A DNA stretch of 64,000 nucleotides from Chryseobacterium ginsenosidimutans. Its GTDB lineage: Bacteria > Bacteroidota > Bacteroidia > Flavobacteriales > Weeksellaceae. A model generated the notes under the pieces. The model did no database searches, had not been told where the DNA came from, and saw only the letters and a program-made list of their open reading frames with translations. The stretch's first letter is position 1, and each line of letters opens with the position of its first letter. The position numbers and the translations under genes are program-made. Where the stretch lies: contig NZ_JAUSXC010000001.1 in the NCBI RefSeq assembly GCF_030823405.1, forward strand, positions 3,455,001-3,519,000, given 5' to 3'. Of this stretch, positions 7,893 to 19,644 are shown one piece after another.

Positions 7893-8483
7893 TTAAATTT
7901 TCTTTGGATGAGAAACCAATTCCTTACGAATTCTGCTTAAAGAAGTATCTGTAACTCCCAGATATGAGGCGATTTGCTTTAACGGAGCAAATTGTACGAC
8001 CTGACATTTTTGTTTTAATAAATTAAGATAACGTTTTGTTGCGGAAAGTGTAAACATTTCAACAGAGCGCTGTTTGTAAGCAAAAAGCTGCTGTGACATC
8101 CATGATCTTCCCCATTCTCTTAGGTTTGGGATTTTATGAAATAATTCCTGAAAAGTATCAAAATCAAATATCCAACATTCACAATCTGTAATGCAAACGA
8201 TATTTTCCTGAGATGCACTTCTTTGGAAAAGCGACAAGACATCAATAATAATTTCGTTTTCTGTAAAAAAGTGCGTGGTTACCTCGTTTCCATTAAAATC
8301 ATTGACATATGACCGAGCCAAACCCTTCTCCAAAATAAAGTATTCGTTTGCAGTTTTCCCTTCTTCAAGAATAAAATCGCCTTTATGGAAAAATATTTTT
8401 TTATGAGCCTGAAATATTTCTTCGAGCTCCTCATCCAGGAAAAATGGAAAATCATAACAGATTTCTAAGGCTTTATTCGTCAT
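7893..8483 (-). CDS. Crp/Fnr-family transcriptional regulator
   Basis: A 196-residue cyclic-nucleotide-binding-fold regulator. The cupin-like domain (about 10-120: FFHKGDFILEEGKTANEYFILEKG) is followed by a long dimer helix and a C-terminal winged helix (KQIASYLGVTDTSLSRIRKEL). It lacks the Arg-Ser cAMP signature and Fe-S cysteines of true Crp or Fnr, as is usual in Bacteroidota paralogues, so its effector is unknown. The ATG at 8483 (MTNKALE) is preferred over a TTG one codon earlier. It is likely to control itself and the VOC/DinB genes downstream. Confidence 0.88.
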   Translation of the reverse strand: MTNKALEICYDFPFFLDEELEEIFQAHKKIFFHKGDFILEEGKTANEYFILEKGLARSYVNDFNGNEVTTHFFTENEIIIDVLSLFQRSASQENIVCITDCECWIFDFDTFQELFHKIPNLREWGRSWMSQQLFAYKQRSVEMFTLSATKRYLNLLKQKCQVVQFAPLKQIASYLGVTDTSLSRIRKELVSHPKKI

Positions 8484-8751
8484 CAATCAAATGTTTTTAA
8501 GTTTTTAAAAATAGAATTTTTATTGGAATTGATGAAAGAATTATTAAACAAAATGATAAATTGTGGTAGACAACTTTATTGTAATCCTTTGCACACAGAC
8601 ATTACAATCAACTCATAATAAGTTTAAAGTTTAAATTTTAAACATTATCATTCAAATAACAAAAATCAAATGTGCTATTAACAACTCTAAGACTTTTACT
8701 ATTTGCTATGTTTGCTTAATGAATAAAGGATTTTACAGTTTAAATTAAGCT

Positions 8752-9963
8752 TTAAAACAAAGAAAGCTGAATAGGTTTTGGATTGGAAGGTTTCTGAGCA
8801 TCTCCAAAAACAGTTTTCCCACCAAAACGCCATGAGTTTTGCCGTTCTTCTTCAATAACTTCCTGAATATCAAAATTTGGGGTGAATTCTTTTTCCGTTG
8901 CTTCAACAATCTGATGAAGTTTGTTTAACGTTTTTAATTTATCTGAATTTCCAAGCTTGGATTTTTCAATTCCTGACTTAAGAATTTGAATGCTTTCATC
9001 ATAAACTTTAGTCGGAACAGGAAACGGATGCCCGTCTTTCCCGCCATGAGCAAAGGAAAACCTCGCCGGATCTTTGAATCTTGAAGGTGCACCGTGAATC
9101 ACCTCACTCACCAAAGCGAGTGACTGCATCGTTCGCGGACCGACACCTTTTAGCATTAATAAATCTTCGAAATTCTGAGGTTGCTGTTCTCTCGTCACAT
9201 ACAAAAGCGCACCTAAACGTTTTAAATCTACATCAGAAGCCTGAACATCATGATGATTGGGAAGAATTAATCTTGAAAAATCACTCATAATTTCCGCGGA
9301 ATCGGTGTGTGAAATATCCAAAATACCTTTTCGGTTTCCTGAAGCTTCTGAATCTGTTAAGTTCAAAATTTCACCTCTTGAAATGCCATTAATTCCCGTG
9401 TGAGGCTCTTCAATAAAGGATTTTATATTTTCCGAATGCCAGTGATAACGTCTTGCTGTACCATCGGATTCATGCATTCCCTGTTGAACGACGCTCCAGT
9501 TTCCGTTATCTGACAAAATAAAATTGTGCAAATACAATTGATAACCATCCTGAATCGCAGTATTATCAACCTTTGCGGAAAGTTTACTGGCTCTTACCAA
9601 TTCGGTTCCGTTTAAGCCTGTTTTATCTGCAATCTGAAGTAATTCCGAAGGCGTATCTCTTGAGAATTTACCTTTTCCGCCACAAATATAAAGTCCAAGC
9701 GATTGAGAATTGGGATTGATAGATCGTTTTAAAGCACCCATGACAGAAGTTGTAATGCCTGAAGAATGCCAGTCCATTCCCATTACTGCTCCAAAACTTT
9801 GAAACCAAAAAGGATCAGCAAGCCGACGAAGAACTTCATCTTTTCCGTAATCTACCAGGATTACTTCAATAATCGAAAGCCCAAGAATAGACATACGTTC
9901 ATACAGCCATGGCGGTACTTTGCCATAGTGTAAGGGTAAATCTGCTGTTCCGGAACGTTTCAT
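8752..9963 (-). CDS. DUF763 domain-containing protein
   Basis: A 403-residue member of the DUF763 family, full length. The N-terminus MKRSGTADLPLHYGKVPPWL is a hallmark of the family. A helix-hairpin-helix-like LLMLKGVGPRTMQSLALVSE lies near residues 265-290, and HGAPSRFKDPARFSFAHGGK follows. The family is found in archaea and bacteria and its function is not established; the HhH segment suggests nucleic-acid binding. It is monocistronic, with spacers of about 150 and 270 bp. Confidence 0.85.
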   Translation of the reverse strand: MKRSGTADLPLHYGKVPPWLYERMSILGLSIIEVILVDYGKDEVLRRLADPFWFQSFGAVMGMDWHSSGITTSVMGALKRSINPNSQSLGLYICGGKGKFSRDTPSELLQIADKTGLNGTELVRASKLSAKVDNTAIQDGYQLYLHNFILSDNGNWSVVQQGMHESDGTARRYHWHSENIKSFIEEPHTGINGISRGEILNLTDSEASGNRKGILDISHTDSAEIMSDFSRLILPNHHDVQASDVDLKRLGALLYVTREQQPQNFEDLLMLKGVGPRTMQSLALVSEVIHGAPSRFKDPARFSFAHGGKDGHPFPVPTKVYDESIQILKSGIEKSKLGNSDKLKTLNKLHQIVEATEKEFTPNFDIQEVIEEERQNSWRFGGKTVFGDAQKPSNPKPIQLSLF

Positions 9964-10114
9964 TTAATCTGTAAATTTAGTTTTATTATGATGATATTTT
10001 TATGTTTTGAATCAATTATTAAACAAAAAAGTGAATAAAGTTCATACTTTTTTAAAGTCTTTCTTAAAGCAAGCTACCTTATCAAATTCAATTGTTGTCC
10101 AAATTAATTAAAGC

Positions 10115-10462
10115 TTATTGATGTGATAAAATATTAACTAATTTCCCAAACGGATCCTTGACAAAGAACCTGCGAACTCCCCAATCTTCATTGGTAATCT
10201 CATAAATAATTTCAAATTCTGAATTCTTAATTTGTTCATACATTTCATCAACATTATCAACTCCAATAGAAAGATCAGGAACTTCCGTGTCATTTCCGCC
10301 CTGAATTGCAAAACTAATCTGAACTTTCGCTTCTTCGTCACTCCCGAAAGTTTTGATCCAGCCATGATTCATTACCGTTTCAAGACCTAAAATATCATGA
10401 TAAAAATGATCTGCTTTTGACAGATCTTCAGCTTTGATATTTGTAACGATTCTTTTTACCAT
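10115..10462 (-). CDS. VOC family protein (glyoxalase superfamily)
   Basis: A 115-residue VOC module. MVKRIVTNIKAEDLSKADHF opens strand 1, and the end FVKDPFGKLVNILSHQ is the family's Asp-Pro-x-Gly-x-Leu motif. The ATG at 10462 is used; an in-frame TTG two codons earlier is unlikely. The gene is a single cytoplasmic unit lying just past the tpx terminator. Confidence 0.87.
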   Translation of the reverse strand: MVKRIVTNIKAEDLSKADHFYHDILGLETVMNHGWIKTFGSDEEAKVQISFAIQGGNDTEVPDLSIGVDNVDEMYEQIKNSEFEIIYEITNEDWGVRRFFVKDPFGKLVNILSHQ

Positions 10463-10492
10463 TATCAACCTTATTTAGAAATTCTTACTGCC

Positions 10493-10530
10493 AAAAAAGC
10501 CTTGCAAATAAAACTTTCACAAGGCTTTTA
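10493..10530 (-). terminator. Rho-independent terminator of tpx
   Basis: On the minus strand AAAAGCCTTG pairs perfectly with CAAGGCTTTT across a 15-nt loop and runs into a T tract. It begins about 20 bp past the tpx stop codon. Confidence 0.85.
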
Positions 10531-10548
10531 TAAAAATTTATGGGTAAA

Positions 10549-11046
10549 TTATTTTAATGCTTCAATTGCTGCACTATAATTTGGTTCGTTGGCAATTTCT
10601 GAAACCTGTTCAGTATAAACCACTTTATTGTTCTCGTCAGTTACGATTACAGCACGGCTCAAAAGACCTTTCATCGGAGAATCTGTAATTGTCACCTCAT
10701 AATCATCACCAAAAGTGCCTCTGAAATCTGAAAGTGTTTCAATATTATTTAACCCTTCTGCAGCACAAAATCTTGTCAAAGCAAAAGGAAGGTCTTTTGA
10801 AACATTGATTACAACAGTATTCTCAAGGTTTGAAGCTTCTTCGTTGAATTTTCTTGCAGAAGATGCACAAGTCGGTGTATCAATACTTGGGAAAATATTG
10901 AAAACTTTTTTCTTTCCTTCAAAGTTCTCAAGAGTTTTTACACTTAAACCGGAATCTACCAAAGCAAAATCTTTTACAGTTGTTCCTACTGCCGGTAAAG
11001 TTCCTATTGTATGTACTTCGTTTCCTTTTAAAGTAATATTTGACAT
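10549..11046 (-). CDS. tpx: Thiol peroxidase (2-Cys peroxiredoxin, Tpx type)
   Basis: An atypical 2-Cys peroxiredoxin that reduces hydrogen and alkyl peroxides using thioredoxin. It has 165 residues from the ATG at 11046 (MSNITLKGNEVHTIG), the normal Tpx length. The peroxidatic Cys60 sits in SIDTPTCASSARKF and the resolving Cys94 in LTRFCAAEGL; both are present, as is the active-site Arg in LLSRAVIV. An in-frame upstream start would add eight residues and is unlikely. It is divergent from icd and has its own terminator. A TAAATTTG -7 element lies 22 bp upstream. Confidence 0.97.
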   Translation of the reverse strand: MSNITLKGNEVHTIGTLPAVGTTVKDFALVDSGLSVKTLENFEGKKKVFNIFPSIDTPTCASSARKFNEEASNLENTVVINVSKDLPFALTRFCAAEGLNNIETLSDFRGTFGDDYEVTITDSPMKGLLSRAVIVTDENNKVVYTEQVSEIANEPNYSAAIEALK

Positions 11047-11067
11047 AAATTTATTTTTTAAGTTTTT

Positions 11068-11075
11068 CAAATTTA
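11068..11075 (-). promoter_or_regulatory. Candidate -7 element for tpx
   Basis: TAAATTTG on the minus strand matches the Bacteroidota -7 consensus TAnnTTTG, 22 bp before the tpx ATG. No clear -33 TTG is seen at standard spacing. Confidence 0.45.
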
Positions 11076-11162
11076 ATCAAAATGAAAAGGACTTTCTTGA
11101 AATAAAGGTTAAATAATTCTTAAAGTGAAAATTCTTATTTGGGTTTAATCTAAAAAAATTAA

Positions 11163-13433
<2,271 letters not shown>

Positions 13434-13456
13434 TTTTCGGATTTAATATAAAAATG

Positions 13457-13484
13457 AAAAGCTCCTTTTTTAAGGGGCTTTTTT
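13457..13484 (+). terminator. Rho-independent terminator of icd
   Basis: AAAAGCTCC pairs with GGGGCTTTT (one G-U pair) and is followed by TTTTTT, about 23 bp past the icd stop. Confidence 0.8.
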
Positions 13485-13560
13485 GGTTTAATTGAAACAC
13501 AAATAATCACTAATATTTTTCACAAATAACACAATTAACAATAACAAATAGTAGCAGTTA

Positions 13561-13600
13561 GCCGCCCCGTTTGTCATTCCGTAGGAATCTAAACATCGTT
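13561..13600. repeat. Possible dispersed intergenic repeat fragment
   Basis: GTTTGTCATTCCGTAGGAAT followed by CTAAACA resembles a short repeat recurring in flavobacterial spacers. A related but diverged TTTGTCATT sequence lies near 5448. This is recognised from general knowledge only; no second full copy exists in the window. Confidence 0.3.
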
Positions 13601-13622
13601 TTTGATTTAGTTTCTTGAATTT

Positions 13623-13961
13623 TTAAATTTTATCCTCCACAATAACTTTCCGATGCTCCCTTCCCCAATTAATCATTTCTGCAATAATATTCCCAAAAGT
13701 TCGGCAATATTCTGTTGGAACATACTCAATTAAAACAGGTGTATCGGGGTAAACATTTCGTTTTACCAACTTATTCAACTCCATGTCTTTCAACTCCTTT
13801 GAAAGCATTCTTGTGGTAATTCCGGGGATGCTTCTTTCAATTTCACGGAAACGTTTGTTACCGTTACAAATGGCATTAATAACAGGAATTCTCCACTTTC
13901 CTCCAATGAAATAAAGAGTATCCTGTAATGCTCTCAACTCTTCGGTTTGATCTCTTTCCAT
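13623..13961 (-). CDS. HxlR-family winged-helix regulator
   Basis: A 112-residue HxlR-type (MarR-like) regulator. GGKWRIPVINAICNGNKRFRE and ITTRMLSKELKDMELNKLV form the recognition helix region, and VEYCRTFG-type sequence (EYVPTEYCRTFGNIIAEMI) forms the dimer helix. Several HxlR members sense electrophiles or oxidants through a cysteine. Here the Cys in the recognition wing (AICNG) and the one in YCRTFG are candidates. It is divergent from the SDR gene at 14064, with an inverted repeat between them, so local control of that gene is the natural model. Confidence 0.92.
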   Translation of the reverse strand: MERDQTEELRALQDTLYFIGGKWRIPVINAICNGNKRFREIERSIPGITTRMLSKELKDMELNKLVKRNVYPDTPVLIEYVPTEYCRTFGNIIAEMINWGREHRKVIVEDKI

Positions 13962-13966
13962 GTCTG

Positions 13967-13974
13967 CAAATTTA
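13967..13974 (-). promoter_or_regulatory. Candidate -7 element for the HxlR gene
   Basis: TAAATTTG on the minus strand ends only 5 bp before the HxlR ATG, so the mRNA would have almost no leader. No -33 element is evident. Confidence 0.35.
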
Positions 13975-13995
13975 CGTGATATAATTGACGATACT

Positions 13996-14030
13996 GATAT
14001 ACTCTGTGATACTGGTTACAAAAGTATATC
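13996..14030. promoter_or_regulatory. Candidate HxlR operator (inverted repeat)
   Basis: GATATACT at 13996-14003 is the exact reverse complement of AGTATATC at 14023-14030, centre-to-centre 27 bp. Two further GATACT copies lie at 13990 and 14008. The right arm ends 9 bp before the SDR -7 element (14040), consistent with repression. The assignment to the HxlR protein is inferred from position. Confidence 0.5.
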
Positions 14031-14039
14031 AATTTCCAA

Positions 14040-14047
14040 TAACTTTG
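14040..14047 (+). promoter_or_regulatory. Candidate -7 element for the SDR gene
   Basis: TAACTTTG matches TAnnTTTG, 16 bp before the SDR ATG at 14064. The operator arm AGTATATC lies just upstream. Confidence 0.45.
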
Positions 14048-14063
14048 TCAAAAATTTAAAGAA

Positions 14064-14810
14064 ATGAATACATTTAATAACAAACTAGCCATCGTAACCG
14101 GAGGAAACAGCGGAATCGGTTATGCAACTGCAAAAGAATTAATTGCAGAAGGTGCAAAAGTAATCATCACAGGAAGAAGAAAAGAAGCTGTGGAAAAAGC
14201 AGCTGAAGAATTGGGAGCTATCCCATTTGTGGCAGATCAGTCAAATCTTGATGATATCGACTTATTAAAAAAAGAAGTTGAAAATAAATATGGAAAAGTT
14301 GACATTTTATTTATCAATGCCGGAGTGACGGGAGGTTTAATTCCTATTGAAAATATGAGTGTTGAGAATTTTGACAATGTAATGAACATCAATTTCAGGG
14401 GAGCATATTTTACGTTGAATAAATTCATTCCGTTGTTGAATGAAGGAGCTTCTGTTGTCTTTTTGTCCTCAATTGTTGCAACAATGTATCACGCAAATAA
14501 TTCCGTTTATCAAGCGAGTAAGGCAGCATTAAATTCAATTGCAAAAACAGCCGCCGTAGAATTGGCGCCAAGAAAAATTAGAGTGAATATGGTAAGTCCG
14601 GGACCTACAAAAACAGAAATTATGTATAAAGCAGGATTAGATGAAACTACTTTATCCGGACTTGACGAATGGATGATCAGCCAAATTCCTTTGAGAAAAA
14701 TAGGAACGGCAGAAGATGTTGCCAAGGCAATTGTCTATCTATCTGACAATAATATTGCAAGTTTCATGACCGGAACTGAAATTGTAATTGATGGTGGAAT
14801 GGTTTTATAG
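14064..14810 (+). CDS. SDR family oxidoreductase under HxlR control
   Basis: A classical 248-residue SDR. The cofactor motif is TGGNSGIGYATAK at residues 13-25, with ITGRRKEA after strand 2 suggesting NADP(H) preference. NAGVTGG, the catalytic Ser in LSSIVA, YQASKAA (Tyr and Lys), and MVSPGPTKTEI follow. The end GTEIVIDGGMVL is normal. HxlR-linked SDR genes are widespread and are often induced by electrophiles, but the substrate is unknown. It is divergent from the regulator, with no co-directional partner. Confidence 0.92.
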   Translation: MNTFNNKLAIVTGGNSGIGYATAKELIAEGAKVIITGRRKEAVEKAAEELGAIPFVADQSNLDDIDLLKKEVENKYGKVDILFINAGVTGGLIPIENMSVENFDNVMNINFRGAYFTLNKFIPLLNEGASVVFLSSIVATMYHANNSVYQASKAALNSIAKTAAVELAPRKIRVNMVSPGPTKTEIMYKAGLDETTLSGLDEWMISQIPLRKIGTAEDVAKAIVYLSDNNIASFMTGTEIVIDGGMVL

Positions 14811-14896
14811 AGAACTTACATCAAATTTTAACAAATACCGGCAATTTCGATTATCGGTATTTTTAGTTTTAAACTTTTAACCTTCAAAAATTCCAT

Positions 14897-14923
14897 TTCA
14901 CCTTTCGATATGTCCGGTTCACC
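14897..14923 (+). promoter_or_regulatory. Candidate LytTR operator upstream of the haem-protein gene
   Basis: TTCACC occurs at 14897-14902 and again at 14918-14923, exactly 21 bp apart (two helical turns), with the conserved core CACCTTTC then TGTCCGGTT between them. The same block recurs at 18347 before the DUF1223 gene. LytTR proteins bind direct repeats with this period, and a LytTR regulator is encoded between the two sites. Confidence 0.65.
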
Positions 14924-14956
14924 CGATTTCTTATTTCAAAGCTTCGTTCAACATTC

Positions 14957-14964
14957 TACTTTTG
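14957..14964 (+). promoter_or_regulatory. -7 promoter element, LytTR-associated
   Basis: TACTTTTG fits TAnnTTTG and starts 39 bp after the second TTCACC repeat, 21 bp before the ATG at 14985. The DUF1223 promoter has the identical octamer at the identical 39-bp distance. No -33 TTG is present, as expected for an activator-dependent promoter. Confidence 0.65.
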
Positions 14965-14984
14965 AGCGATAAAAGAAAATCATT

Positions 14985-15968
14985 ATGGACTCAATAAAAG
15001 AAAAAAAGAAAATAAAACCAATTGCTGTTATATTTCTGGCAGTTTTAGGAATTTTTATCTCTTTACAGCTTTTCAACAAACCATTAGAAGGAAAACCTGT
15101 TGCAAAAAAGATCGAAGCACCCCGCGAAGTTCTGACAATTTTGGAAAACTCTTGTTTTAACTGTCATTCAAATCAACAGAATCTAAGTTGGTATGATAAA
15201 ATTGCACCAATTTCCTGGGCAGTGAATAAAGATGTAAAAAGAGCAAAGGAAGCTCTCAATTTTTCAGAATGGAATTATTCGGCAGGCGAACATGAGGGAA
15301 AAATGTACGCCATCTTAAATATGATGAAAAGTGGAAAAATGCCGCTCCACAATTATATATTACTCCATCCCTCTGCAAAAATTACAACAAAAGATGTTGA
15401 AACAATAAAAAAATATACACTTTCATTATCGAGTGTCGGTCCGGCAAAAAAAGAAGCAAAAAATATTCATCAAAATATTGAAATTAAAGGAAATAATACA
15501 CATTCAAAATTTCCCGTTTCTCCAAACGGCGTAAAATATACAGACGATTACAAAAATTGGAAAGTAATCAGTATGAGTACACTTTTCGATAAATCAATAC
15601 GTGTAATTTACGGAAATAACATTGCGGTAAAAGCCATTGAAAACGAAGATTTTCATCCTTGGCCAAATGGTAGCATTATTGTAAAATCTGTTTGGAAACA
15701 GGAAAAATTAGCAGACGGAGAAGTGAGAGCAGGAGAATTTGTCAATGCACAGTTTATGGTTAAAGATTCAAAAAAATACACCGATACTGAAGGTTGGGGA
15801 TTTGCAAAATTTTCAGGAAAAGATCTTCATCCGACAGGAAAAACAGCATCCTTTGCCAAAGAATCATGCATCGCCTGTCATAGACAATTAGCCGAAAAAA
15901 CAGGCTATTTATTTGATGTTCCAATGAAAGTAAATACAGAAAGATTAATTAAAAACCTTCAGAAATAA
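14985..15968 (+). CDS. Membrane-anchored di-domain haem protein (haem-binding domain plus cytochrome P460-like domain)
   Basis: A 327-residue extracytoplasmic protein with one N-terminal membrane anchor (about residues 11-30). The first domain has the c-type haem motif CFNCH at 57-61 in SCFNCHSNQQNLSWY, typical of the Bacteroidota haem-binding domain family, and runs to about 155. The second domain (about 165-327) resembles cytochrome P460, with FHPWPNGSIIVKSVWKQE and a second CxxCH, CIACH, at 295-299. P460-type domains are known to act on hydroxylamine or nitric oxide; whether this one does is untested. It overlaps the lipoprotein gene by 1 bp and has a LytTR-type promoter. Confidence 0.85.
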   Translation: MDSIKEKKKIKPIAVIFLAVLGIFISLQLFNKPLEGKPVAKKIEAPREVLTILENSCFNCHSNQQNLSWYDKIAPISWAVNKDVKRAKEALNFSEWNYSAGEHEGKMYAILNMMKSGKMPLHNYILLHPSAKITTKDVETIKKYTLSLSSVGPAKKEAKNIHQNIEIKGNNTHSKFPVSPNGVKYTDDYKNWKVISMSTLFDKSIRVIYGNNIAVKAIENEDFHPWPNGSIIVKSVWKQEKLADGEVRAGEFVNAQFMVKDSKKYTDTEGWGFAKFSGKDLHPTGKTASFAKESCIACHRQLAEKTGYLFDVPMKVNTERLIKNLQK

Positions 15969-16408
15969 TGAAAAAGATATTATTCATAATCATGTCAGTT
16001 TGTGCATTATTCACTGCCTGTAAAATTGATGAACCCGACAAAGATTTAAAACGTATTGTTTTTGATCCTGGAAATTTGAAATTCATTTCAACATCATTAA
16101 ATACAAAAAAAGAAACTTCATCCGCATTATACGGAAATCAAGAAGCTTTAGAATCATTATCGAGCGAAAATAATCAACTAAAAATCGGTTCAACACTAAA
16201 ATTAGTAACCTGGAAATATCATGAAAATCCACAATATATCGGAGGCACAATTACAGGAGAATTACTAAGTGTTGAAACTTTTAAAACCGATAAAAATGGA
16301 AAGATTTCTTATCAAATTCAAAATTCTACTGAAAAAGAAAATAATCCTTCAAATAAAGAAGAAAGAATAAAACACATCATGAGTTACGAACCCGTCGTAA
16401 GACCATAA
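15968..16408 (+). CDS. Small lipoprotein of unknown function, coupled to the haem protein
   Basis: A 146-residue protein with a lipoprotein signal peptide (MKKILFIIMSVCALFTACK; lipobox Cys at 18). The ATG overlaps the TAA of the haem-protein gene (ATG at 15968-15970), so translation is probably coupled. The mature part is hydrophilic with few conserved features (LKLVTWKYHENPQYIGGTIT), which suggests a small beta-rich periplasmic domain. I recognise no family. Tight coupling suggests a partner or accessory of the haem protein at the periplasm or outer membrane. Confidence 0.75.
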   Translation: MKKILFIIMSVCALFTACKIDEPDKDLKRIVFDPGNLKFISTSLNTKKETSSALYGNQEALESLSSENNQLKIGSTLKLVTWKYHENPQYIGGTITGELLSVETFKTDKNGKISYQIQNSTEKENNPSNKEERIKHIMSYEPVVRP

Positions 16409-16433
16409 TAATAGTAAAAGTGAAATGGTTTTC

Positions 16434-16470
16434 AATCTGGAGTCGAGAAATCGGCTTCGGATTGTTTGTT
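16434..16470 (+). terminator. Stem-loop after the haem protein/lipoprotein pair
   Basis: AATCTGGAGTCGA pairs over its full 13 bp with TCGGCTTCGGATT (three G-U pairs) around a GAAA tetraloop, followed by GTTTGTT. The stem is strong but the T tract is modest, so termination may be partial before the histidine kinase gene. Confidence 0.55.
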
Positions 16471-16548
16471 AAAATCAATTATGAATAGGCAATTTACCGT
16501 ATTATCACTTAAAAATATTAACTTAACATCTTTAAATCCGCAGTTCTC

Positions 16549-17565
16549 ATGCAGCAGCAAAAAATAAAAATTTCACAAGCCGTCATCTGGATAAGTTCTA
16601 TTTTTTTGGGAGTTTTATCTTCGGTTCCGCAACTCGCTTCTCATGCTTTCAACTGGAAAGAAGCAGTGGTAAATTCGGCTATCACAGCGGCTTTTTCCAT
16701 TATTATGTGGTATCTCAACATATATTTACTCAACCGAAATTCAGAAAAGAAAAGACAACAAATATCCTATTCAAGATTAATGATTGTTTTGGCTTTCGGG
16801 ATGGTCATTATGTTTGGTTTAGCCTGGATTCAACAGCTTATTTTATCACACATCAGTTTCGGTCCGACAATGTTGATGGTAGAAGTCAGAGGGATTTTAA
16901 TCAATCTTGTATGCTATATGTTTTTGACTTTACTTCAAAATAATTACACGGGTCAACAGGTTCAACTGGAATTGGAAAAAGTAAAAAGTGATAATTTGGG
17001 AGCTCAGTTTGAATTATTAAAACAGCAAATCAATCCACATTTTCTTTTTAACAGTTTAAACACTTTAAAATCAATGGCTGAAACGAATGATTCTGAAACT
17101 GTTGATTTTATCATGAAACTTTCTGACTTCTATCGCTTTACGTTGGAAAGTAGAAAATTAGATCTGATTACTGTTCAGGAGGAAATGAAAATTATCGATT
17201 CGTATATTTTTCTACAAAAAGCTCGTTTTGGCGAAGGAATTACACTTACAAATGAATTAAATAATGAAGTTTTAAAAACATTAATCCCGCCTTTTACCTT
17301 ACAGTTATTAGTTGAAAACTGTATTAAACATAATATTGTTTCACAAAGCAAACCTTTACACATAAGAATTTACAGTTCTGAAAATAGAATTGTTATTGAG
17401 AATCCTGTTCAAAAGAAAATGACGACAGAAGATTCATTAGGAATTGGATTAGACAATGTAAAATTGCGTTACAAACACCTATTGGAACAGGAAATTCAAA
17501 TTAATTCAGACGAAAAAATATTTCAAATAAAACTCCCTTTTATCCATGAATATCATCATCATTGA
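16549..17565 (+). CDS. LytS-type membrane sensor histidine kinase
   Basis: A 338-residue histidine kinase of the His_kinase (PF06580) class. Four membrane helices occupy about residues 8-130, followed by a short coiled linker. The phosphoacceptor His164 lies in KQQINPHFLFNSLNTLK, and the ATPase N box is LQLLVENCIKHN. The G box GIGLDNVKLRYKHL lies near residue 305. No extracellular sensor domain is visible, so the signal may be sensed in the membrane. It overlaps the response regulator gene by 20 bp, indicating an obligate pair. Confidence 0.93.
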   Translation: MQQQKIKISQAVIWISSIFLGVLSSVPQLASHAFNWKEAVVNSAITAAFSIIMWYLNIYLLNRNSEKKRQQISYSRLMIVLAFGMVIMFGLAWIQQLILSHISFGPTMLMVEVRGILINLVCYMFLTLLQNNYTGQQVQLELEKVKSDNLGAQFELLKQQINPHFLFNSLNTLKSMAETNDSETVDFIMKLSDFYRFTLESRKLDLITVQEEMKIIDSYIFLQKARFGEGITLTNELNNEVLKTLIPPFTLQLLVENCIKHNIVSQSKPLHIRIYSSENRIVIENPVQKKMTTEDSLGIGLDNVKLRYKHLLEQEIQINSDEKIFQIKLPFIHEYHHH

Positions 17566-18313
17566 AGACGAATTCAGAGCCGCGAAATCTCTTCAGAATT
17601 TAATATTAGAATTAAAACCGGATGCCAAAATTCTTGGCGTTTACGACAGTATTGAAATGACTGTTGAATCTTTATCAAAAGATGTAAAACCCGATCTTAT
17701 TTTCATGGATATCCATCTGTCTGACGGACTTTCATTTGAAATTTTCAAACAGGTAGAAATTACTTGCCCGGTGGTTTTCTGTACCGCTTTCGACCAATAT
17801 ATGCTGGATGCTTTTAAAAGTAAGGGCGTCGATTATGTCTTAAAACCATTTTCGCGAGAAGACATTGCCGAAGCTCTGAAGAAAGTTGATGAATTAAAGA
17901 AATTTTTTCAGAAATCAGAACTTCCCGATCTGGAAGCTCTTTTACAGAAAATCAGTCAGCCACAATCTGCGAGCAAGAGTAGTTTTCTGGTCTTTAAAAA
18001 TCAAAAATACACAACAATTCTCACGGAAAATATTGCTTATTTCTACATTCACAATGAGATTACACATCTTGTTACTTTTGATAAAGAACAGTTTCAGTTA
18101 ACCCAATCTTTGGGGCAGGTTGCTGAACAGGTTTCCGAGAAACAATTTTTCAGAATTAATAGGCAATACTTAGTCAATTTTAAAGCCATTAAAGAAATGG
18201 AGCATTATTTCCAGCGTAAAATTCTGGTTAAATTAACGATAGAAACTGCCGAAAAGCTACTTATTAATAAAGAAAAAACACACAGTTTTTTTACATGGCT
18301 GGAAGACCGTTAA
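17546..18313 (+). CDS. LytTR-family response regulator
   Basis: A 255-residue response regulator. The receiver domain (1-120) has acidic residues EDE at 7-9, phosphoacceptor Asp55 in LIFMDIHLSDG, and Lys in VLKPFSRED. The LytTR DNA-binding domain (about 150-250) contains NIAYFYIHNEITHL, FFRINRQYLVNFKAI and a C-terminal KTHSFFTWL. It partners with the kinase gene it overlaps. LytTR proteins bind paired repeats about 21 bp apart. Such repeats occur before the two transcription units flanking this pair (14897 and 18347), making those the likely targets. Confidence 0.95.
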   Translation: MNIIIIEDEFRAAKSLQNLILELKPDAKILGVYDSIEMTVESLSKDVKPDLIFMDIHLSDGLSFEIFKQVEITCPVVFCTAFDQYMLDAFKSKGVDYVLKPFSREDIAEALKKVDELKKFFQKSELPDLEALLQKISQPQSASKSSFLVFKNQKYTTILTENIAYFYIHNEITHLVTFDKEQFQLTQSLGQVAEQVSEKQFFRINRQYLVNFKAIKEMEHYFQRKILVKLTIETAEKLLINKEKTHSFFTWLEDR

Positions 18314-18346
18314 ACTTCTAAAATTTTCAACTTTATATTATACAGG

Positions 18347-18374
18347 TTCACCTTTCATTTTGTCCGGTTGAACC
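18347..18374 (+). promoter_or_regulatory. Candidate LytTR operator upstream of the DUF1223 gene
   Basis: GGTTCACC at 18345-18352 and GGTTGAACC at 18366-18374 repeat with 21-bp spacing. The spacer shares CACCTTTC and TGTCCGGTT with the 14897 site. The site lies about 30 bp after the response-regulator stop codon. Confidence 0.65.
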
Positions 18375-18406
18375 TTTTTTGTATTCTTTTGCGCCGGAAA
18401 GGTATC

Positions 18407-18414
18407 TACTTTTG
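18407..18414 (+). promoter_or_regulatory. -7 promoter element of the DUF1223 gene
   Basis: TACTTTTG, the same octamer as at 14957, starts 39 bp after the second repeat and ends 16 bp before the ATG at 18431. The flanking TCTACTTTTGA is shared between the two promoters. Confidence 0.65.
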
Positions 18415-18430
18415 AATCAAATTAAAAGAA

Positions 18431-19204
18431 ATGATACTAAAAAACTTAATAGGAACAGCCGCTTTTGTAGCATTAATGTTCATCGTCTCCGCTTTTGTTT
18501 ATAAAAATAAAGCCAAAGAAAACCATCAAAATTCATCTTTCAAAAACAATGGTTTTGCCGTTTTGGAGCTGTTCACTTCTGAAGGTTGTTCGAGTTGTCC
18601 GCCTGCCGATCAGTTGATGGGTGAAATTGAAAAACAATACAAAGATCAACCTGTTTACGTTCTCGCCTATCACGTCGATTATTGGAATAGTTTAGGCTGG
18701 AAAGATAAGTTCAGTAGTGTGGAAAATTCTAAACGCCAACAACAATACAGTCAAATTTTGCGCTCACAGGTTTACACTCCTCAACTGATTGTGAATGGTA
18801 AAAAAGAGTTTGTAGGCTCTGACCGAGATGCAGTGGAAAGTGCGATTCAGACGGCTTTATTTAATTCCAGCAATGCTAAAGTTGATTTATCTGCAAAAGT
18901 TTCGGAGAAAGAAATTAATGTAAACTTCAAAACTGTAGAAAATAATTCACAAAACAAGCTTCTTGTAACTCTTGTCGAAAAAAAGGCATCCACAAATGTT
19001 CAAAAAGGGGAAAACGAAGGTCGCCATTTGATCCATTGGCAGATTGTTCATCAACAAAATCAAATTTCTTTGAAAAATTCTACAGAAGGAACGACGAGTT
19101 TTAAGCTTCCTGAAAATTTCAATATTAATGATTGGGAAATTATTGGAATGATCCAAAATGTAAAAACAGGAGAAATTCTAGGTTCTGCAAAGGCTTCTTT
19201 TTAA
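18431..19204 (+). CDS. DUF1223 thioredoxin-like protein, membrane-anchored or secreted
   Basis: A 257-residue DUF1223 protein. An N-terminal hydrophobic segment (about 5-24) serves as signal or anchor. The thioredoxin-like core has LFTSEGCSSCPPADQL with a CxxC pair at Cys53/Cys56, then AYHVDYWNSLGWKDKF, YTPQLIVNG with the cis-Pro of the fold, and a beta-rich C-terminal domain. The reaction is unknown, though the CxxC makes thiol-disulfide chemistry plausible outside the cytoplasm. Its promoter matches that of the haem-protein gene. Confidence 0.88.
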   Translation: MILKNLIGTAAFVALMFIVSAFVYKNKAKENHQNSSFKNNGFAVLELFTSEGCSSCPPADQLMGEIEKQYKDQPVYVLAYHVDYWNSLGWKDKFSSVENSKRQQQYSQILRSQVYTPQLIVNGKKEFVGSDRDAVESAIQTALFNSSNAKVDLSAKVSEKEINVNFKTVENNSQNKLLVTLVEKKASTNVQKGENEGRHLIHWQIVHQQNQISLKNSTEGTTSFKLPENFNINDWEIIGMIQNVKTGEILGSAKASF

Positions 19205-19251: not shown

Positions 19252-19644
19252 ATGAAAACAAAAACAACAAAAATCATCTATTGGTCAGGTGCAATTTTTA
19301 TGTCATTATGGTTTGGAGCAAGCGGCTTCTTTGAACTGACAAAAAATCCTGTAGTTTGGGACATCACCTTGCAATTAGGCTATCCATCGCATTTCATCTA
19401 CATTTTAGGAGTATTTAAACTAGCCGGAATTCTGGTTTTATTACTTCCAAACAGATTATTAAGATTGAAAGAATGGGTTTTCGCAGGAATGTTTTTTGAC
19501 ATCACTTTTGCATTCTTTTCAAAAATTGCTGTGCTTGGTTTTCCATCAACGATCGATGCCATTGTAGCATTTACGGTACTTTCAGTAACTTATTTTATGT
19601 TCAGAAAATTATACACGCCAAAACCGATTTTTGGAGAAGCTTAA
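19252..19644 (+). CDS. DoxX-like membrane protein
   Basis: A 130-residue four-helix membrane protein of the DoxX-like superfamily (WSGAIFMSLWFGASGFFELT, GYPSHFIYILGVFKLAGILVLL, PSTIDAIVAF). It starts 47 bp after the DUF1223 stop with no intervening terminator, so it probably belongs to the LytTR-controlled transcript. DoxX relatives have been linked to membrane redox processes; the role here is inferred from context only. Confidence 0.82.
   Translation: MKTKTTKIIYWSGAIFMSLWFGASGFFELTKNPVVWDITLQLGYPSHFIYILGVFKLAGILVLLLPNRLLRLKEWVFAGMFFDITFAFFSKIAVLGFPSTIDAIVAFTVLSVTYFMFRKLYTPKPIFGEA

What the first reader, a model, noticed from the sequence alone, without database searches (positions are those of the whole stretch)
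14897..18414. Two promoters flanking a LytS/LytTR pair share an identical operator-promoter layout
Seen directly: at 14897/14918 and at 18347/18368 the repeats are exactly 21 bp apart, the spacer shares CACCTTTC and TGTCCGGTT, and in both cases the -7 element TACTTTTG begins exactly 39 bp after the second repeat, inside a shared TCTACTTTTGA. LytTR proteins are known to bind direct repeats with about a two-turn period. The pair encoded at 16549-18313 lies between the two sites. The half-site consensus differs from the classical LytTR motif, so this may be a distinct binding code. No copy was seen before the kinase gene itself.
Basis: partly seen in the sequence, partly recalled or inferred. Interest (0 to 1): 0.75.

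Follow-up and report, generated by a model that had tools for sequence, protein, structure and literature searches.

The report
LytTR regulator's operators and stress regulon
A membrane sensor and its DNA-binding partner in a Chryseobacterium sit between two promoters that carry the same control site, and that site recurs in related bacteria in front of a small set of genes that look like defences against organic peroxides and other reactive chemicals.

Summary
It is not chance. The block precedes the Haem_bd/cytochrome-P460 gene in 44 of 44 Chryseobacterium loci and the DUF1223 gene in 43 of 44; outside the genus it precedes DUF1223 in 18 of 21 loci. In 36 non-Chryseobacterium loci, 40 matches fall at this one half-site/-7 offset, against 0-3 at each of 17 other offsets. 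Sites track the regulator: 7 of 7 genomes with an ortholog, 6 of 289 without.

The own genome has two more likely targets, unlinked: a secreted alpha/beta hydrolase and an epoxide hydrolase. Both families lie beside the pair, with such sites, in other genomes.

Best explanation: the LytTR protein activates a small regulon, probably against organic-peroxide or electrophile stress at the envelope. Binding, activation and signal are inferred. The geometry is canonical for LytTR activators and the core resembles published half-sites, so a "distinct binding code" is overstated. I found neither the extended TTTGTCC half-site nor the regulon in the papers searched.

The parts
14888..14902 (+). Site A, distal half-site AAATTCCATTTCACC
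14909..14923 (+). Site A, proximal half-site TATGTCCGGTTCACC, 21 bp from the distal one
   Evidence: conserved in 44 of 44 Chryseobacterium loci by the GTCY-45-TAnnTTTG rule
14957..14964 (+). Site A promoter, -7 element TACTTTTG, 48 bp from the start of the proximal half-site
14985..15968 (+). Target gene: Haem_bd (PF14376) + Cytochrome_P460 (PF16694) protein, two CxxCH motifs
   Evidence: CxxCH read from the translation
15968..16408 (+). Probable co-transcribed small lipoprotein-like protein, weak P460 match below the Pfam cut-off
16433..16464 (+). Terminator-like hairpin (14 pairs) between the P460 unit and the kinase gene
   Evidence: 6 such sites in the region, 2.3 expected from shuffles
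16549..17565 (+). LytS-type membrane histidine kinase (PF06580)
17546..18313 (+). LytTR response regulator (PF00072 + PF04397)
18338..18352 (+). Site B, distal half-site TTATACAGGTTCACC
18359..18373 (+). Site B, proximal half-site TTTGTCCGGTTGAAC
   Evidence: conserved in 43 of 44 Chryseobacterium and 18 of 21 other loci
18407..18414 (+). Site B promoter, -7 element TACTTTTG
18431..19204 (+). Target gene: DUF1223 protein (PF06764)
   Evidence: the family is classed as thioredoxin-like in PMC3091736 (passages)
19252..19644 (+). DoxX-like membrane protein (PF13564), probably co-transcribed with DUF1223
   Evidence: no site of its own in 0 of 44 Chryseobacterium loci

Best explanation
Sites A and B are operators of the LytTR response regulator encoded between them. 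Each is a direct repeat of about TTTGTCC(G/A)NTTCANC with a 21-bp period (two helical turns, one face), about 10 bp upstream of a weak -33 element and at a fixed 48 bp (half-site start) from the -7. The phosphorylated regulator probably binds both halves in tandem and recruits RNA polymerase to a Bacteroidota-type promoter; the membrane kinase LytS controls phosphorylation. In this genome three promoters are well supported (P460 unit, DUF1223-DoxX, an unlinked alpha/beta hydrolase) and a fourth is probable (an unlinked epoxide hydrolase). In other Bacteroidota the same sites and cluster add Ohr peroxiredoxin, a cupin protein and a DsbD-N protein. The gene content suggests organic hydroperoxide, epoxide or other electrophile stress at the envelope. 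Shown by sequence: layout, conservation, target set, co-occurrence with the regulator. Inferred: binding by this regulator, activation rather than repression, and the signal (about 0.5 for the stress class).
For: Exact layout. Conservation at P460 44 of 44 and DUF1223 43 of 44 in the genus, DUF1223 18 of 21 outside it. One fixed offset in 36 distant loci: 40 matches against 0-3 at 17 other offsets, and a second half-site at exactly 21 bp. Co-occurrence with the regulator: 7 of 7 against 6 of 289 genomes in the phylum sample, 22 of 22 against 8 of 37 in the genus sample. Unlinked targets: the alpha/beta hydrolase is found in 14 and the epoxide hydrolase in 10 of 59 genus genomes, all among the 22 with the regulator, and both co-cluster with the pair in G042 or in same-order genomes L191-L194. 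Ohr is TIGR03561 over its cut-off. The geometry agrees with published LytTR sites (PMC4847170 and PMC6193735, passages).
Against: No binding or expression data. 13 of 36 distant loci have no site before a gene by the strict rule, and Haem_bd/P460 outside the genus fails the exact rule in 6 of 6 (four of them have both halves with a -7 of 5 of 6 at the right place, the other two score no better than background). The epoxide-hydrolase site of the own genome has 3 mismatches and a weak distal half. The pair has no site of its own in Chryseobacterium, so the autoregulation usual in some LytTR systems is not seen. Four genomes in the phylum sample with a regulator at 36-41% and one in the genus sample at 42% have no site. 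Co-occurrence tests ignore relatedness.
Confidence: 0.82

Rival explanations
1. The block is the operator of another regulator that travels with these genes, such as the neighbouring HxlR protein or an unlinked one.
For: An HxlR gene lies beside the locus in the window and in 41 of 44 Chryseobacterium loci whose upstream could be read.
Against: The HxlR gene has no such site (0 of 41, 0 of 15); among distant loci with sites several show no HxlR match in the stretch (for example L078, L082, L092, L096-L099, L104). Repeat length and 21-bp period are those described for LytTR proteins. A 36.5% identical LytTR pair in G003 is flanked by similar blocks.
Confidence: 0.1
2. The sites belong to LytTR proteins in general, and another of the 13 LytTR proteins of the cell binds them.
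For: 13 LytTR genes in the genome; the G003 pair uses a similar site.
Against: The other 12 LytTR stretches of the own genome (about 1.5 kb each side) score 16.5-22.3 against 27.0 for this locus; sites track orthologs of this regulator.
Confidence: 0.06
3. Chance resemblance, or a recent duplication of one promoter.
For: The two blocks share more than the half-sites (CACCTTTC, TGTCCGGTT, TCTACTTTTGA).
Against: Each block is conserved separately in the genus, while the bases between operator and -7 drift (28-46: 0.53 and 1.0 bits per base, halves 1.3-1.6; the GTC and -7 columns were anchored); the geometry recurs in other families.
Confidence: 0.01
4. The LytTR operator reading is right but the regulon serves another purpose, for example xenobiotic or aromatic-compound breakdown or nitrogen-oxide handling, not peroxide or electrophile stress.
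For: Epoxide and alpha/beta hydrolases and P460-type cytochromes fit such roles as well (general knowledge of the families); the nearest named NCBIfam models for the hydrolase are haloalkane dehalogenases far below their cut-offs.
Against: Ohr peroxiredoxin, thioredoxin-like DUF1223 and a DsbD-N protein in the same clusters.
Confidence: 0.4

Closest known systems
S. mutans LytTR Regulatory Systems (HdrRM, BrsRM) operators
   Same: Direct repeats with a 21-bp period close upstream of the -35; core ACC(A/G)CTTA resembles TCC(A/G)CTTCA (PMC6193735, passages)
   Different: Other phylum and promoter type; partner is a membrane inhibitor, not a kinase; no TGTC extension
Predicted LytTR operators of Bacteroides thetaiotaomicron and B. 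ovatus
   Same: TCCGGTATTCA-11 bp-ACCGGAAATCA, 11 bp upstream of TGTA-19 bp-TATCTTTG: same phylum, same promoter type, repeat start to -7 of 45 bp by my arithmetic against 44-48 here (PMC6193735, passages)
   Different: 22-bp period, two more bases between CCGG and TTCA; membrane-bound LytTR proteins with DUF2154/NfeD-like partners; prediction only in that paper
E. coli BtsS/BtsR (YehU/YehT) and YpdA/YpdB
   Same: LytS kinase plus LytTR regulator; direct repeats (YpdB GGCATTTCAT, 21-bp period as read from the printed probe) (PMC4847170 and PMC5552118, passages)
   Different: Pyruvate sensing and transporter targets; kinase with 5TM-5TMR_Lyt and GAF domains, neither found by Pfam in this kinase
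Ohr regulated by OhrR (recalled, not looked up)
   Same: Control of an Ohr peroxiredoxin gene
   Different: OhrR is a MarR-family thiol sensor; here a two-component LytTR system would do it

Membership tests
LytS/LytTR two-component systems | Membrane kinase with PF06580 next to a receiver-LytTR regulator | tested here: met
   regulator keeps D8, D55, K100 in at least 97% of 81 sequences and the kinase the NPHFLFNSL motif in 80
LytS/LytTR two-component systems | 5TM-5TMR_Lyt and GAF sensor domains as in BtsS/YpdA | tested here: not met
   Pfam finds only PF06580; this feature is that of the E. coli pair, not of all LytS-type kinases
LytTR operator | Two repeats of 9-11 nt with 11-13 nt spacers, close upstream of the -35/-33 | tested here: met
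   21-bp period and about 10 bp to the -33-like TT against PMC4847170 and PMC6193735 (passages)
LytTR operator | Bound by the LytTR protein | not testable with these tools
   needs gel shift or footprint
Bacteroidota-type promoter | -7 TAnnTTTG with a weak -33 element | tested here: met
   TACTTTTG at both sites; a TT 23 bp upstream of the -7 carries 1.66 and 0.74 bits in 40 distant sites although not selected for
Autoregulated LytTR systems (LRS type) | Operator upstream of the regulator's own operon | tested here: not met
   0 of 44 and 0 of 35 LytS upstreams by the exact rule; 2 loci by a looser rule
Oxidative or electrophile stress regulon | Induction of the genes by such stress | not testable with these tools
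   gene content only

The most novel reading that the evidence does not exclude
An unrecognised Bacteroidota envelope-defence regulon against organic peroxides and reactive electrophiles, run by a LytS kinase that senses an oxidised or hydrophobic molecule within the membrane through its conserved polar residues there (Q95/Q96, E112, R114, N119). The regulon has its own operator code, TTTGTCC-extended 21-bp repeats locked to the -33/-7 promoter, which other Bacteroidota LytS/LytTR pairs reuse, for instance before an efflux operon.
Probability: 0.4. Interest if true: 0.75.

Novelty: new member of a known kind. Interest (0 to 1): 0.56.

Why it matters
I found no experimentally mapped LytTR operator or regulon of Bacteroidota in the papers searched, although this genome alone has 13 LytTR genes. 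Here one operator, its spacing to the phylum's own promoter and a coherent target set can be read from sequence and tested together. If the regulon answers organic peroxides or epoxides, it would be a two-component route to Ohr control, and it gives a working context for DUF1223, Haem_bd/P460 and DoxX proteins.

Tried and rejected
Site as a general rule for all LytTR genes of the genome: not supported, best scores 16.5-22.3 in 12 other stretches against 27.0; the 22.3 of L110 was not followed up. Inverted-repeat reading: the repeat finder gives a 16-nt, 75% complementary pair at site B, but distant sites are plain direct repeats at 21 bp. Third half-site 42 bp upstream: seen in some promoters (7 of 40), weak at sites A and B, so not claimed there. 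L126 (3 mismatches): its match lies inside an unrelated coding frame; taken as chance. Own promoter of the pair: none recognised; a terminator-like hairpin lies upstream. sigma-70-type promoter scan: 23 found, 19.5 expected, no use. RNA-based control: set aside without a test, because the repeats lie upstream of the -7. Sequence search of solved structures matched receiver domains only within the 30 hits listed and was not used. Papers: searches showed no such operator or regulon; most subscription papers are not held. PMC10197871 reports a LytTR mutation in evolved Flavobacterium johnsoniae isolates (passages), not linked to these genes; PMC10057207 and PMC5395568 mention LytTR in passing (passages). 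No structure prediction, fold search or protein-database search was run.
Full report
What was claimed and what is there. Every coordinate and distance is right. The regulator carries a receiver and a LytTR domain, the kinase PF06580. The window is Chryseobacterium-like: the nearest listed regulator relative is C. arachidis at 94%.

Is it more than chance? In the own genome (4.3 Mb) the operator core with up to 2 mismatches occurs 22 times (reversed pattern 9), and only the two promoters of the finding have TAnnTTTG at 39 bp. Proximal half-site and -7 together, up to 3 mismatches, give 5 matches against 1 for the reversed pattern. From 308 relatives of the regulator the best 80 loci were kept: 44 Chryseobacterium and 36 other Bacteroidota. 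GTC(C/T/G) at exactly 45 bp before TAnnTTTG lies upstream of Haem_bd/P460 in 44 of 44 and of DUF1223 in 43 of 44 Chryseobacterium loci, and of DUF1223 in 18 of 21 others. Controls: LytS 0 of 44 and 0 of 35, SDR 0 of 40 and 0 of 13, HxlR 0 of 41 and 0 of 15, DoxX 0 of 44 and 2 of 21. Haem_bd/P460 outside the genus gives 0 of 6 by this rule; four of the six (L079, L081, L083, L088) have both halves (9 and 8-9 of 13) with a -7 of 5 of 6 at the right distance, and two (L103, L106) have nothing of the kind; in these two an alpha/beta-hydrolase-like frame appears to end directly upstream (read), and L106 has a site before such a gene.

The half-site and its geometry. In the 36 distant loci (450,762 bases), scoring TTTGTCCNNTTCANC plus TANNTTTG gives 40 matches at one offset (48 bp, half start to -7) and 0-3 at each of the 17 other offsets from 40 to 57; reversed sequences give 1 at 48. 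At these 40 sites the second half-site peaks at exactly 21 bp upstream (mean 6.88 of 13; 23 of 40 score 7 or more), with a weaker third copy at 42 bp (7 of 40). A TT 23 bp upstream of the -7 stands out though it was not selected for, leaving about 10 bp between operator and -33. In print, LytTR sites are two repeats of 9-11 nt with 11-13 nt spacers (PMC4847170, passages), and LRS repeats lie mostly 10 bp upstream of the -35 (PMC6193735, passages). The geometry is therefore canonical.

Does it depend on this regulator? In 296 genomes spread over the phylum (pattern up to 1 mismatch), sites occur in 7 of 7 genomes whose regulator is 55% identical or more (observed 59-100%) and in 6 of 289 others. 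One of the six, G055, has the pair cut by a contig end; the other five have a single match each; the reversed pattern hits 2 genomes. The protein search scored only the best 9 candidates per genome, so an ortholog could have been missed. In 59 genus genomes (pattern up to 2 mismatches) the figures are 22 of 22 and 8 of 37 (recounted). The eight are G055; G003, with another LytTR pair; and six whose match fails the rule (exact spacing with an open frame behind it). Reversed-pattern matches occur in 8 of the 59 genomes. These tests ignore relatedness.

More targets. Two further matches in the own genome stand before secreted-looking enzymes: an alpha/beta hydrolase (796 kb, 1 mismatch) and an EHN epoxide hydrolase (3,070 kb, 3 mismatches). 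Homologs of the first occur in 14 and of the second in 10 of 59 genus genomes, all among the 22 with the regulator. The three hydrolase orthologs at 80-81% (L128-L130) carry repeat and -7 at the expected spacing, one with GCCC for GTCC. Of the ten at about 65%, seven show three half-sites in 21-bp steps with TAATTTTA at 39 (some halves degenerate), L138 shows two halves with TATGTTTG, L136 lies inside an operon, and for L134 the called frame starts too early, across the presumed site (L170 for L136). For the epoxide hydrolase, the best-scoring place upstream of each of 10 first copies has TAnnTTTG at the expected distance, with proximal halves of 7-11 of 13; the eleventh sequence is a second copy in an operon without a site.

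Clusters. In G042 one cluster holds: site, two epoxide hydrolases, DsbD-N protein, DUF1223, site, Haem_bd/P460, small lipoprotein-like protein, alpha/beta hydrolase, DoxX, LytS, LytTR, and after a gap Ohr. Four of the five regulator-positive same-order genomes were read (L191-L194; G278 was not): each has the pair with DUF1223, Ohr, alpha/beta hydrolase and DoxX, and either an epoxide hydrolase (L193) or a cupin protein (L191, L192, L194), with three sites before such genes. In all four the DoxX site has CAnnTTTG; one further match in L192 lies within another gene. In the wider scan of 41 loci (36 distant plus five stretches), 44 sites stand before: alpha/beta hydrolase 22, DUF1223 10, unassigned 6 (three of them the cupin), LytS 2, epoxide hydrolase 2, Ohr 1, Haem_bd/P460 1; names are by best match to a small reference set. 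23 of the 36 distant loci have at least one such site, 13 have none.

How it probably works. The kinase has hydrophobic, probably membrane-spanning segments in its first 130 residues and no recognised sensor domain; that part is conserved in polar residues across 80 sequences, which would suit sensing within the membrane (inference). The regulator keeps D8, D55 and K100. Tandem binding just upstream of a weak -33 implies activation (inference from the described LytTR systems). Ohr (TIGR03561, over its cut-off), epoxide hydrolases, thioredoxin-like DUF1223 (PMC3091736, passages) and a DsbD-N protein suggest organic-peroxide or electrophile stress at the envelope (inference, about 0.5). The pair has no site in Chryseobacterium, and a terminator-like hairpin separates it from the P460 unit, so it may be expressed separately; read-through is not excluded.

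Generality. In G003 a regulator 36.5% identical to this one, with its own PF06580 kinase, is flanked by two blocks with TTTGTCCACTTCA(A/G)C at the same spacing to the -7, the second before genes for an outer-membrane efflux protein, an HlyD-type adaptor and an AcrB-type pump whose frame is short in that stretch. So the code may not be private to one ortholog group; this rests on one genome. The other 12 LytTR genes of the own genome show nothing comparable within about 1.5 kb.

Verdict. Observation confirmed. The core interpretation, an operator of the LytTR protein, is strongly supported by comparison and untested biochemically; 'distinct code' is overstated. New member of a known kind, with a regulon not found in print by the searches.

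Noticed in passing
L171 (G003:C2) 7937-14500: A different LytS/LytTR pair (regulator 36.5% identical) flanked by two blocks of the same layout, before a DUF6268 protein and before an efflux operon; the AcrB-type frame there is short.
   Followed up: partly
13623-13961 and 14064-14810: A divergent HxlR-type regulator and SDR pair travels with this locus also in distant genera (for example L077, L089, L093, L094, L108) without carrying the operator.
   Followed up: partly
16433-16464: Terminator-like 14-pair hairpin between the P460 unit and the kinase gene; no promoter of the pair recognised behind it.
   Followed up: no
L209-L216, about 100-145 bp upstream of the epoxide hydrolase frames: Three TTNANC-like half-sites in 21-bp steps instead of two.
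   Followed up: partly
L110 position 293: Best score among the other LytTR stretches of the own genome (22.3 against 27.0); may be a degenerate site of another pair.
   Followed up: no
L077 and L089, sites at 2748 and 2779: Sites of this type before 156-158 aa secreted-looking proteins of unknown kind in Flavobacterium.
   Followed up: no
window 16549-17565: Polar residues in the membrane part of the kinase (Q95, Q96, E112, R114, N119) are conserved in at least 97% of 80 sequences.
   Followed up: no
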